Positions 51,773-64,000 of a DNA stretch of 64,000 nt are shown here, piece by piece. Positions within the stretch are counted from its first letter, which is position 1. Every line of letters starts with the position of its first letter. A model generated the notes under the pieces. That model did no database searches. It was given only the letters and a program-made list of their open reading frames with translations, and was not told where the DNA came from. Source of the stretch: Chloroflexota bacterium (GTDB taxonomy: Bacteria; Chloroflexota; Dehalococcoidia; Bin125); contig JAPOXK010000011.1 of the NCBI GenBank assembly GCA_026707145.1, positions 99,908 to 163,907 of the forward strand, written 5' to 3'. The translations under genes and the position numbers were made by a program.

Positions 51773-52234
51773 ATGCCGACACTCGAGGAACGCGTCAAGC
51801 TATTGGAGGACCTGGAGGCGATCCGCCGCCTCAAGATCGCCTACGCGCGTGCCGTCGACGAGCGCGTCCCCGGCGCTCAGTACGCCGCCCTCTTCACCGA
51901 GGACGCCGAGCTCGACGGCGGCCTCGTCGGCGAGGCCAAGGGCCGCGCGCAGATCACCGAATTCTTCGAGGAGGCCAAGAAGAAGCTTCCCTTCTTCCTC
52001 CACTACATGATGGGCCAGACCATCGACGTCGACGGCGACGACGCCACCGGCCACTGGTACCTCTGGGAGCCCGCCACCGCGGAGAGCGGCGAGCCGATCT
52101 GGATCGCCATCACCTACAACGATCGCTACAAGCGCGTGGACGGCGAGTGGAAGATCGATTACTCCAAGCTGAACTTCCACTTCGCCACCCCGTACGACAA
52201 AGGCTGGGTCCAGCAGCAGTTCATCGAAACCTAG
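51773..52234 (+). CDS. NTF2/SnoaL-like family protein, paralogue 1
   Basis: TLEERVKLLEDLEAIRRLKIAYARAVDE...LFTEDAELDGG...HYMMGQTIDVDGDDATGHWYLWEPAT...FATPYDKGWV. Confidence 0.87.
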   Translation: MPTLEERVKLLEDLEAIRRLKIAYARAVDERVPGAQYAALFTEDAELDGGLVGEAKGRAQITEFFEEAKKKLPFFLHYMMGQTIDVDGDDATGHWYLWEPATAESGEPIWIAITYNDRYKRVDGEWKIDYSKLNFHFATPYDKGWVQQQFIET

Positions 52235-52381
52235 CCGCGCCGGCCCAAGCGCCTCTCCGCCCGGCCTCCACCTGGAAGGCTCCGCCTTCTTGTGGGCCGG
52301 CCGCGCCGAGCGCTAGCCTGCCCCGCGCAAGCAGCGTTCAGGCCCCGGCGCGGTCGCCGGCCGGGCGAGGGAGGAACGGCA

Positions 52382-52852
52382 ATGGCATCGTTGGAGGATC
52401 GTGTCCAGCTCCTGGAGGACATTGAGGCGATCCGCCGTCTCAAGATCAAGTACGCCCGGCTCTGCGACACCGGCTACGACGGCACTAAGCTCGCCGCCCT
52501 CTTCACCGAGGACGCCGTCTGGGACGGCGGCAAGGAGTTCGGCGTCCAGAACGGCCGGGGGGCGATCAAGGCGATGTTCGACGACATGTCGAACGACCTC
52601 ACCTTCGCCCTGCACTACATGATCGGACACACGATCGACGTCGACCCGTCCGGTACCTCGGCCAAGGCCCACTGGTACCTGTGGGAGCCCATGACCTATC
52701 AGGGCCGCGCCATCCTCAACGCCATCACCTACGACGACGAGCACAGGAAAGTGGACGGGGAGTGGCTCTTCTCTCGCATGGCTCTCACCTTCCACTTCCT
52801 CACCCCCTACGAGGACGGGTGGGTGAAGACGCGCATGGTCACGGACGGGTAG
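52382..52852 (+). CDS. NTF2/SnoaL-like family protein, paralogue 2
   Basis: SLEDRVQLLEDIEAIRRLKIKYARLCD...LFTEDAVWDGG...HYMIGHTIDVDPSGTSAKAHWYLWEPMT...LTPYEDGWV. Confidence 0.87.
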   Translation: MASLEDRVQLLEDIEAIRRLKIKYARLCDTGYDGTKLAALFTEDAVWDGGKEFGVQNGRGAIKAMFDDMSNDLTFALHYMIGHTIDVDPSGTSAKAHWYLWEPMTYQGRAILNAITYDDEHRKVDGEWLFSRMALTFHFLTPYEDGWVKTRMVTDG

Positions 52853-52896
52853 CGGACCGCTCCACGGTCCGGCGATCCGAGCGGGAGAGGACCGGG

Positions 52897-53361
52897 ATGG
52901 ATCTCGAAGAGCGCGTGCAGCGGCTCGAAGCGATCGAGGCGATCCGGCGCCTCAAGATCGCCTACGCGCGCGTCGCCGACGACGGCTACGACGGCGACCG
53001 CATCTCGGCCTTTTTCACCGAGGACGCCGTTTGGGACGGCGGCGAGTCGTTCGGCGTGCACCGCGGCCGCGCCGCCATCAAGGCGCTGTTCGACGGCATC
53101 CCCGAGCAGATCAGCTTCGCCCTCCACTACATGGTGGGGCATACGATCGACGTCGATCTCGCTGCCGGCTCCGCGACGGGCCACTGGTACCTCTGGGCGC
53201 CGATGACCATCAACAACGCCGCCACGCTCGGCGCCATCACCTACGACGACGAATACCGCAACATCGCGGGCGCCTGGCTGGCGTCGCGCATGCAGGTCAA
53301 CATCCACTTCATCACGCCCTACGAAGATGGCTGGGTGAAGACGCCGATGCTGCCCGGTTAG
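52897..53361 (+). CDS. NTF2/SnoaL-like family protein, paralogue 3
   Basis: DLEERVQRLEAIEAIRRLKIAYARVAD...FFTEDAVWDGG...HYMVGHTIDVDLAAGSATGHWYLWAPMT. Confidence 0.87.
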   Translation: MDLEERVQRLEAIEAIRRLKIAYARVADDGYDGDRISAFFTEDAVWDGGESFGVHRGRAAIKALFDGIPEQISFALHYMVGHTIDVDLAAGSATGHWYLWAPMTINNAATLGAITYDDEYRNIAGAWLASRMQVNIHFITPYEDGWVKTPMLPG

Positions 53362-62017: not shown

Positions 62018-62072
62018 TGCAGGCGCGGCGGCGGCGCGAACCGTAAAGCGGCGAGCGCGGAGCGAAAGCACC

Positions 62073-63497
62073 GTGATCCCGACGACCATCGCCGCGACCG
62101 CAACCGGGCTCGACCGCGGCGATTTCTCCGCGCGCGAAGTCGTCGAAGAGACCTTTCGCCGCATTGATCATTCTGACGATCGGATTCGGGCCTGGTTGCG
62201 GCTTTGTCCGGAACGGGCTCTCGAAGAGGCGGATGCCTCCGACGCGCGCCGCGCCGCTGGGCAACGCCTCGGCGCACTCGACGGCATCCCCTTCGGCATC
62301 AAGGACATCATCGATACGGAGGGCGTCGAGACCACCTGCGCCTCGGACGTCCTTGCGGGCAACGTCCCAGCGGAAGACGCCACTGCCGTCGCTCGCCTGC
62401 GCGCCGCGGGCGCCATCGCCGTCGGCAAAGTCAACACACACGCCTTCGCTTACGGCGTCGTCTCTCCGCCGACGCGGAACCCTTGGCATGCCGGTCACAT
62501 CCCGAGCGGCTCCAGCGGGGGCTCCGGTGCTGCCGTTGCTGCCACCCACGTCCCTCTCACGCTCGGCACGGATACCGGCTGCTCGATCCGTGCTCCCGCC
62601 GCGCTGTGCGGCATCAGCGGCCTCAAGCCCACCTTTGGCCGCGTGCCCAAGGACGGCGTCGCCGTCCTCTGTTGGTCCCTCGATCACGTGGGTCCCATGT
62701 GCTGGACTGCCGAGGACGCTGCCATCGCCCTCAACGCGCTGGCCGGCCGCAGCCTTCGCGACCCGACCTCTTCCCGCCGCCCCAGCGAGGATTTCACTCG
62801 TGAGCTCGGGCAGTCCATCGCCGGCCTGCGCATCGGCGTGCCCGGGGGGTACTTCACCAGTCACTTCCCGGCCGTCACCGCCGCCATCGAGACGGCTGCG
62901 GAGACGCTCGATCGGCTGGGCGCGACGCTCTGCCCCATCGCCACTGCCCCCACCGTCGGCGGTCTGACGCCGCACGTCCCCGGCCTCGCCATCCACTTCT
63001 CCGAGCCGCTGGCTTGGCACGCGAATCGCTTCTCCCGCCAGCGCGGCGACTATCCCGGGGATGTCGCGACGTTCCTCCAACACGGCGCCGCCATGCTTGC
63101 CACCGATTACATCAACGCCCGGCGTTACCGCAGCCGCTTCAATCTGGAGATGCAGCGCCTCTACGAGCGCCATCAGATCGATCTCCTGATCACGCCCACG
63201 GTTCCCGTGACCGCTGGGGCCGTGGACCAGGAGGACTACCGCTCTGCTGACGGCCTCGTCGAAGATCTCGTTTGGGCCTCGGTGCGCTGCGCCTTTCCCT
63301 TCAACATGACCGGTCAGCCCGCGCTCACCGTCCCTTGTGGTTTCGATGATGCCGGTTTGCCCATCGGCTTGCAGATCGCCGGCCGCCCTTGGGCCGAGGC
63401 GACCGTCCTTCGCGTTGGTCACGCGTTCCAGCATGCGACCGACTGGCACACGCGCCGGCCGCCCACGGTGGAATCTGCCGCAGCCCGGTCCGCCTGA
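62073..63497 (+). CDS. Amidase signature enzyme, paralogue 3
   Basis: GIPFGIKDIIDTEGVET, IPSGSSGGSGAAVA, LGTDTGCSIRAPA; GTG start. Confidence 0.92.
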   Translation: MIPTTIAATATGLDRGDFSAREVVEETFRRIDHSDDRIRAWLRLCPERALEEADASDARRAAGQRLGALDGIPFGIKDIIDTEGVETTCASDVLAGNVPAEDATAVARLRAAGAIAVGKVNTHAFAYGVVSPPTRNPWHAGHIPSGSSGGSGAAVAATHVPLTLGTDTGCSIRAPAALCGISGLKPTFGRVPKDGVAVLCWSLDHVGPMCWTAEDAAIALNALAGRSLRDPTSSRRPSEDFTRELGQSIAGLRIGVPGGYFTSHFPAVTAAIETAAETLDRLGATLCPIATAPTVGGLTPHVPGLAIHFSEPLAWHANRFSRQRGDYPGDVATFLQHGAAMLATDYINARRYRSRFNLEMQRLYERHQIDLLITPTVPVTAGAVDQEDYRSADGLVEDLVWASVRCAFPFNMTGQPALTVPCGFDDAGLPIGLQIAGRPWAEATVLRVGHAFQHATDWHTRRPPTVESAAARSA

Positions 63498-63505
63498 GGT
63501 CGGCG

Positions 63506-64000
63506 ATGTCACCTCCGCTCACCGTCGCTGCGATCGCGCGCTCCCTGGCCGCCGGGGAATGCTCCGCCCTGGAGATCGCCGACGGTTGCCTTCGCCGGAT
63601 CGACGAAACCGATGCGGCCGTCAAAGCCTGGAGCCGTCTTTGCGCCGATCGCGCGCGGCGTGAAGCCGCCGCTTCCGACGCACGCCGCGCCCGCGGCGCG
63701 GCCCGCGGTCTCTTGGACGGGGTGCCGTTCGGGGTCAAGGACATCATCGATACGGAGGGCGTCGAGACCACTTGCTCGGCGGACCTCCTTGCGGGCAACG
63801 TTCCCCAAACGGACGCCACGACCGTCGCGCGTCTGCGCGCCGCCGGGGCCGTTATGCTTGGCAAGGTCAATACGCAACCGTTCGCCTACGGCGTGACCAC
63901 CCCCCCGACGCGCAACCCTTGGAACCTGGATCATGTTCCCGGCGGCTCCAGCGGGGGCTCTGGCGCTGCCGTCGCCGCGCGACAGGTGCCCTTCGCTCTC
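63506..64000 (+). CDS. Amidase signature enzyme, paralogue 4 (truncated by window edge)
   Basis: ATG 63506; GVPFGVKDIIDTEGVETTCSADLLAGN, VPGGSSGGSGAAVAARQVPFAL running off the window; not present in the ORF track. Confidence 0.9.
   Translation, partial: MSPPLTVAAIARSLAAGECSALEIADGCLRRIDETDAAVKAWSRLCADRARREAAASDARRARGAARGLLDGVPFGVKDIIDTEGVETTCSADLLAGNVPQTDATTVARLRAAGAVMLGKVNTQPFAYGVTTPPTRNPWNLDHVPGGSSGGSGAAVAARQVPFAL

What the first reader, a model, noticed from the sequence alone, without database searches (positions are those of the whole stretch)
51773..64000. Super-array of tandem paralogues: 7 NTF2-like, 3 LLM monooxygenases, at least 4 amidases, all co-directional
More than 12 kb consists almost entirely of three families in successive tandem blocks on one strand with short gaps. 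This is far more than ordinary duplication and implies selection for parallel substrate specificities, or a multistep pathway in which oxygenation (LLM), hydration/isomerisation or binding (NTF2-like) and C-N cleavage (amidase) act on related substrates. Expansion of flavin monooxygenases in SAR202-type Chloroflexota has been described, but I know of no description of this ordered NTF2-LLM-amidase array. Strongest candidate for an undescribed system in this window.
Basis: partly seen in the sequence, partly recalled or inferred. Interest (0 to 1): 0.8.

Follow-up and report, generated by a model that had tools for sequence, protein, structure and literature searches.

The report
Stacked enzyme-family array for degradation
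A bacterial chromosome carries seven dehydratase-like, three flavin/F420 oxidoreductase and five amidase genes in successive tandem blocks; the copies diverged long ago and smaller versions of the dehydratase-plus-oxidoreductase block recur in unrelated bacteria, so it looks like a many-substrate degradation locus built on a recurring enzyme pair that I did not find described.

Summary
The window has seven SnoaL_4/NTF2-like genes, three luciferase-like (LLM) genes and three complete amidases plus one cut by the window edge, all on the + strand. The genome continues to a fifth amidase and an Opp/Dpp-type ABC transporter.

The copies are not a recent amplification. All five amidases and at least three of the seven NTF2-like genes group with proteins of other organisms. 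Tyr-Asp-His residues shared with the dehydratase BaiE and the lyase LdpA are kept in six of seven NTF2-like copies.

The NTF2-LLM linkage recurs: 5 NTF2 + 2 LLM in another family of the same class (about 23% identity), NTF2-NTF2-LLM beside Opp permeases in a third, and an adjacent pair in Actinomycetota. LLM-amidase linkage is enriched in this genome but not in two relatives. The full triple order was seen with DNA context only here.

Best reading: a catabolic locus with parallel specificities in which an LLM oxidoreductase is paired with BaiE/LdpA-like dehydratases or lyases, with AtzE-like amidases added. LLM cofactor (FMN or F420), substrates and co-transcription are untested. New variant of a known kind.

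The parts
49074..50297 (-). CaiB/BaiF-type (class III) CoA transferase, divergent from the array
   Evidence: PF02515 hit at C19:149059-150189; membership of the locus is inferred from position
50335..51618 (-). CaiB/BaiF-type CoA transferase, divergent from the array
   Evidence: PF02515 hit at C19:150320-151453; 154 nt upstream of N1
51773..52234 (+). N1, SnoaL_4/NTF2-like, Tyr-Asp-His retained
   Evidence: PF13577 92 bits; residues
52382..52852 (+). N2, SnoaL_4/NTF2-like
   Evidence: PF13577; groups with proteins of other organisms
52897..53361 (+). N3, SnoaL_4/NTF2-like; structure modelled
   Evidence: AlphaFold2 pLDDT 94.7; best PDB folds LdpA, BaiE, LinA
53399..53866 (+). N4, SnoaL_4/NTF2-like
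   Evidence: PF13577; orthologues P0002/P0003 at 85-87%
53912..54373 (+). N5, SnoaL_4/NTF2-like; Tyr of the triad replaced by Val, longest branch
   Evidence: PF13577 73 bits; residues; tree
54396..54899 (+). N6, SnoaL_4/NTF2-like, divergent
   Evidence: PF13577 74.6 bits
55008..55478 (+). N7, SnoaL_4/NTF2-like
   Evidence: PF13577 98 bits
55585..56613 (+). L1, LLM-class oxidoreductase
   Evidence: PF00296 and TIGR03619 above cut-off
56665..57717 (+). L2, LLM-class oxidoreductase; structure modelled
   Evidence: TIGR03619 209.8 vs cut-off 166.9; model pLDDT 90.4; nearest folds Mer (F420), SfnG, MsuD, RutA
57755..58780 (+). L3, LLM-class oxidoreductase
   Evidence: TIGR03619 215 bits
58906..59106 (+). 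66-aa GatC/AtzG-like small protein, overlaps amidase 1 by 20 nt
   Evidence: TIGR00135 gatC E=0.0011, below cut-off; overlap
59087..60523 (+). A1, amidase-signature hydrolase, AtzE/GatA-like
   Evidence: PF01425 347 bits; AtzE model 320.7 vs cut-off 461
60614..62017 (+). A2, amidase-signature hydrolase
   Evidence: PF01425 360 bits; closest match P0122, 69%
62073..63497 (+). A3, amidase-signature hydrolase
   Evidence: PF01425 353 bits
63506..64000 (+). A4, amidase-signature hydrolase, cut by the window end (complete in L022:3414-4835); A5 and an Opp/Dpp ABC transporter follow outside the window

Best explanation
This is a catabolic locus made of parallel paralogues around a recurring enzyme pair. 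An LLM-class flavin or F420 oxidoreductase modifies a ring or chain (oxygen insertion or hydride transfer). A SnoaL_4/NTF2-like enzyme using a Tyr-Asp-His site like that of BaiE and LdpA then eliminates water or a small fragment from the product. AtzE/GatA-like amidases with a shared GatC-like partner release the nitrogen or carboxylate of amide-bearing substrates, and an Opp/Dpp-type ABC transporter beside them brings substrates in. Each block holds several anciently diverged copies, which act on related substrates in parallel rather than as seven successive steps. Shown: families, order, extent, ancient divergence, residue conservation, recurrence of the NTF2-LLM block, LLM-amidase enrichment in this genome. 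Inferred: the reactions, their order, co-transcription, and that amidases and transporter serve the same substrates.
For: Families and order. Trees: all five amidases pair with proteins of other organisms (five separate changes forced by supported branches); N2, N3 and N4 do so with full support and N7 (P0054) more weakly, while N1 pairs with a dispersed copy in this genome. Near-identical clusters with 22-27 member sequences make an assembly artefact unlikely. Catalytic site: D28 and H77 invariant and Y23 at least 90% in 57 homologues; H77 aligns with H97 of NaLdpA, the residue mutated in the substrate-bound crystal 8abu. Recurrence: L111 has 5 SnoaL_4 then 2 LLM, the last NTF2 and first LLM overlapping by 4 nt; L106 has Opp permeases-NTF2-NTF2-LLM; at least 12 Actinomycetota loci have NTF2 beside LLM. 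Linkage in the own genome: NTF2-LLM 5 of 11 clusters (1.0 expected, P about 0.003), amidase-LLM 6 of 15 (1.6 expected, P 0.003); CoA-transferase controls not enriched.
Against: No substrate, expression or activity data. The LLM subfamily model is named F420-dependent and cofD is present, so oxygenation is not assured. N5 lacks the Tyr. Among 50 NTF2-bearing stretches from other genomes only one has an amidase near, and two relatives show no LLM-amidase enrichment, so the amidase part may be incidental. The recurring NTF2-LLM loci of the class are dominated by one genus. The promoter/terminator scan is uninformative.
Confidence: 0.55

Rival explanations
1. Three separate tandem expansions lie side by side in a catabolic hot spot; NTF2-LLM may be a true pair, but the amidases and their transporter form an independent amide-nitrogen unit.
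For: Only 1 of 50 NTF2 stretches from other genomes has an amidase near, against 13 with an LLM; no LLM-amidase enrichment in G002 and G003; NTF2-amidase adjacency not enriched in the own genome (P 0.32); amidases can cluster with ABC transporters on their own (PMC6219798).
Against: LLM-amidase adjacency is enriched in this genome, including LLM, small ORF, amidase in the same order at C19:212.9-215.6 kb and LLM-AMI-AMI-LLM-LLM-LLM at C28:55-63 kb; no strand switch or long gap between L3 and A1.
Confidence: 0.3
2. The LLM proteins are F420-dependent reductases or dehydrogenases, so the locus does F420 redox chemistry followed by elimination, not oxygenation.
For: TIGR03619 (F420_Rv2161c) above its curated cut-off for all three; cofD at 313.6 bits, cut-off 257; first fold match is an F420-bound Mer; relatives named 'probable F420-dependent oxidoreductase'.
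Against: The names are from automatic annotation; fold matches include the FMN monooxygenases SfnG, MsuD and RutA at similar scores; SAR202 papers treat such paralogues as monooxygenases.
Confidence: 0.4
3. A biosynthetic cluster: SnoaL-type cyclases, LLM oxygenases and amidases tailoring a natural product.
For: SnoaL and LLM proteins occur in polyketide and other biosynthetic clusters (established knowledge).
Against: No synthase or synthetase was noticed among the neighbours examined; neighbours are CoA transferases, thiolase, enoyl-CoA hydratase, HpaB, oxoprolinase and Opp transporters; the same families are expanded genome-wide.
Confidence: 0.05
4. Recent dosage amplification or a draft-assembly artefact.
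For: Tandem layout; the genome is a draft in 28 contigs.
Against: Copies are only 27-65% identical and the lanes group with other organisms; near-identical protein clusters with 22-27 members were assembled elsewhere.
Confidence: 0.02

Closest known systems
SAR202-type Chloroflexota expansions of LLM/FMNO and CaiB/BaiF paralogues (PMC5395668, PMC6946804, PMC6306507)
   Same: Many LLM (61) and CaiB-type CoA transferase (27) genes in a 2.4-Mb genome; degradation-type neighbours
   Different: The terms SnoaL and amidase do not occur in the main text of PMC6946804, nor SnoaL or 'amid' in PMC6306507; those papers count families rather than describe an ordered tandem array
atzG-atzE-atzH clusters (PMC6219798)
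   Same: GatC-like small protein with an AtzE-like amidase, an NTF2-fold enzyme, ABC transporters, in some a monooxygenase and FMN reductase
   Different: AtzH is DUF3225, here PF13577; amidases score below the AtzE cut-off; five amidases and seven NTF2-like genes instead of one each
BaiE and the bai pathway; SteC of steroid degradation (PMC10382948, PMC13101464)
   Same: SnoaL_4 fold, Tyr-Asp-His residues, CaiB/BaiF-type CoA transferases near
   Different: About 23-26% identity; the bai flavin enzymes BaiCD/BaiH are not LLM proteins (my knowledge); other bai partners not sought
LdpA/PcfL NTF2-superfamily formaldehyde lyases of lignin-dimer catabolism (PMC12997858)
   Same: Best fold match; His at the aligned position; multiple NTF2 homologues per genome
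   Different: About 20% identity; no lignin-dimer genes recognised nearby
LimB-LimA limonene pathway of Rhodococcus DCL14 (PMC7794910)
   Same: A monooxygenase handing its product to an NTF2-fold enzyme (that LimB is LLM-type is from my own knowledge)
   Different: LimA is the LEH family, not SnoaL_4; an analogy only
RutA of pyrimidine degradation
   Same: An LLM flavoenzyme whose product is then hydrolysed by an amidohydrolase (established knowledge)
   Different: RutA equivalog scores 41-51 bits against a cut-off of 498

Membership tests
SnoaL_4 (PF13577) | Score above Pfam cut-off | tested here: met
   All seven genes at 73-98 bits in the genome scan, cut-off 24; three also by hmmscan
BaiE/LdpA-type NTF2 enzymes | Tyr-Asp-His residues at the aligned positions | tested here: met
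   Y, D, H in six of seven; N5 has V-D-H; fold match
BaiE (bai pathway member) | Bile-acid or steroid substrate and bai partners | not testable with these tools
   Only CaiB-type CoA transferases seen; substrate needs an assay
Limonene-1,2-epoxide hydrolase (LEH) | LEH family match | tested here: not met
   Pfam scan of N1, N5, N6 gives SnoaL families (and DUF4440) only
LLM class, TIGR03619 subfamily | Score above curated cut-off | tested here: met
   205.7, 209.8, 215 vs 166.9
Flavin monooxygenase | Uses FMN and inserts oxygen | tested here: inconclusive
   Fold matches both FMN and F420 enzymes; cofD present
RutA | Equivalog cut-off | tested here: not met
   41, 50.4 and 51.3 bits vs 498.3
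Amidase signature (PF01425) | Score above cut-off and conserved Lys/Ser/Ser positions | tested here: met
   347-360 bits for A1-A3; K85, S157/S158, S181 invariant in A1-A5
AtzE | Equivalog cut-off | tested here: not met
   320.7-338.9 bits vs 461
atzG-atzE-atzH cluster | GatC-like partner | tested here: inconclusive
   gatC model E=0.0011, below cut-off; overlap with A1
atzG-atzE-atzH cluster | DUF3225 AtzH | tested here: not met
   NTF2-like genes tested are PF13577
Single operon | Co-transcription | not testable with these tools
   Short gaps and one strand only; no RNA data

The most novel reading that the evidence does not exclude
Tandem SnoaL_4 proteins plus LLM oxidoreductases form a general, undescribed two-enzyme degradation module spread across Chloroflexota-like and actinobacterial lineages. 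In some lineages it is multiplied into arrays and joined to amidases, giving a combinatorial system for many related, partly nitrogenous recalcitrant compounds.
Probability: 0.4. Interest if true: 0.65.

Novelty: new variant of a known kind. Interest (0 to 1): 0.45.

Why it matters
LLM/FMNO expansions of SAR202-type bacteria have been linked to oxidation of recalcitrant organic matter, but partner enzymes are largely unknown. A recurring NTF2-LLM pairing gives a concrete candidate for the next step (elimination after oxidation) and a small gene set that can be expressed and tested. The ancient, separately retained copies make the question of parallel specificity directly testable.

Tried and rejected
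Recent amplification: rejected by trees. Chance adjacency of NTF2 and LLM: unlikely and the linkage recurs elsewhere. AtzE, RutA and LEH membership: cut-offs or families not met. CoA-transferase linkage as part of the module: not enriched. Inverted repeats bounding the transposase at 47.7-48.6 kb: none found. Promoters and terminators: no useful signal. Full-text search for SnoaL-like plus luciferase-like clusters: none of the ten listed titles describes such an array. One coordinate error in an alignment call was corrected. The original BaiE structure paper is not held, so its residue roles come from alignment and my own knowledge.
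Full report
What is there. ORF listing, a simple gene caller and profile scans give seven SnoaL_4/NTF2-like genes, three LLM genes and four amidase starts on the + strand from 51773 to the window end. The window is C19:99908-163907 of a 2.42-Mb, 28-contig draft. Reading on, amidase 4 is complete, amidase 5 ends at about C19:166268, and Opp/Dpp-type permease and ATPase genes follow. A 66-aa ORF between the last LLM and the first amidase resembles GatC weakly (E=0.0011, below cut-off), and its reading frame overlaps amidase 1 by 20 nt. 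Two CaiB/BaiF-type CoA transferases lie divergently upstream.

Genome context. The genome has 20 SnoaL_4, 61 LLM, 20 amidase and 27 CoA_transf_3 matches. Of 19 members of the same family searched, 18 have one to four SnoaL_4 matches and one has eight. The close NTF2 subfamily (above 170 bits) was seen in a 296-genome class sample only here, in G284 (a tandem pair) and in G177. At E <= 1e-30 the order search (20 genomes) added one weak match and the phylum sample (399 genomes) five genomes with one match each, at most 149 bits. The array amidase clade scores 845-868 bits here against at most 500 in the 396-genome class sample.

Age of the copies. The maximum-likelihood trees place all five amidases beside proteins of other organisms (A1-P0129, A2-P0122, A3-P0137, A4-P0139, A5-P0131), with five separate changes forced by supported branches. 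N2 (P0014, P0023), N3 (P0027, P0025) and N4 (P0002, P0003) do the same with full support; N7 (P0054) is weaker, N1 pairs with a dispersed copy of this genome, and N5 and N6 sit on long branches. The LLM tree is less decisive: L2 and L3 group together and L1 apart. Recent amplification is therefore rejected.

Catalytic reading. N3 folds with high confidence (pLDDT 94.7) and best matches LdpA, BaiE and LinA structures. D28 and H77 are invariant and Y23 at least 90% conserved in 57 homologues; six of seven array copies keep all three, N5 has Val for Tyr. By counting back from the aligned end, H77 falls on NaLdpA H97, the residue changed in the substrate-bound entry 8abu. LdpA dehydrates its substrate and then loses formaldehyde (PMC12997858), and BaiE and SteC remove ring hydroxyls. 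L2 matches Mer (F420), SfnG, MsuD and RutA folds at similar scores; TIGR03619 is named F420-dependent and cofD is present, so the cofactor is open.

Recurrence. Of 50 stretches around SnoaL_4 genes of other genomes, 13 have an LLM within 2.5 kb and one an amidase; many are from one genus and a few stretches repeat a locus. The most telling is L111 (another family): four called SnoaL_4 genes, a fifth seen by profile, then two LLMs, same strand, with an overlap between the last NTF2 and the first LLM. Its NTF2 genes are about 23% identical to the array's and its LLMs 21-26%. L106 has Opp permeases, two SnoaL_4 and an LLM. In the genome-contig scan the LLM relatives of Acidimicrobiia and other Actinomycetota lie beside an NTF2-like gene in at least twelve loci, while those of Binatia and Alphaproteobacteria do not.

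Linkage tests. In the own genome 5 of 11 NTF2 clusters have an LLM within 1.5 kb (1.0 expected, P about 0.003) and 6 of 15 amidase clusters do (1.6 expected, P 0.003); NTF2-amidase, and all three pairings with CoA transferases, are not enriched. The random placement ignores contig structure and general clustering of catabolic genes, so P values are rough. At C19:212.9-215.6 kb an LLM, a 99-aa small ORF and an amidase follow each other in the array's order; the small ORF has no Pfam match and its GatC likeness is my reading of position and sequence. In G002 and G003 1 of 14 amidases is near an LLM, 1.3 expected.

Possible conserved arrays elsewhere. In the protein searches the 'longest contig' lengths coincide across families: 1,101,499 for P0026 (NTF2), P0126 (amidase) and P0242 (LLM); 42,983 for P0136 (amidase) and P0256 (LLM); 19,853 for P0018, P0020 (NTF2), P0244 and P0257 (LLM). 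That these are the same contigs is an inference from equal lengths; the contigs were not read.

Literature. SAR202 LLM and CaiB/BaiF expansions are published. AtzG-AtzE-AtzH clusters show a GatC-like protein, an amidase and an NTF2-fold enzyme together, in some Burkholderiales with a monooxygenase and FMN reductase. My full-text search did not return a description of an NTF2-LLM array, judged from the ten listed titles; most subscription papers are not held.

Verdict. A real, ancient, catabolic-looking array. The NTF2-LLM pairing is the part with comparative support; the amidase link is supported in this genome only. Chemistry, cofactor, substrate and transcription remain untested.

Noticed in passing
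L117:7042-14785 (G000 C28, about 55-63 kb): Another LLM-amidase cluster in the same genome: LLM on the minus strand, then two amidases and three LLM genes on the plus strand.
   Followed up: partly
L118:7879-10560 (G000 C19, 212.9-215.6 kb): LLM, a 99-aa small ORF and an amidase on one strand in the same order as L3, 66-aa ORF and A1 of the array.
   Followed up: partly
window 47740-48593: IS4/IS5-type transposase split over two ORFs (DUF4096, then DDE_Tnp_1) left of the array; no bounding inverted repeats found.
   Followed up: partly
L070:9864-11881 (G006 C36): In a family relative a single SnoaL_4 gene is followed 140 nt later by an amidase on the same strand.
   Followed up: no
window 25292-36374: ABC transporter-like genes, enoyl-CoA hydratase and HyuA/HyuB-type oxoprolinase genes upstream of the array; the transporter identity is my reading of the start of the sequences.
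   Followed up: partly
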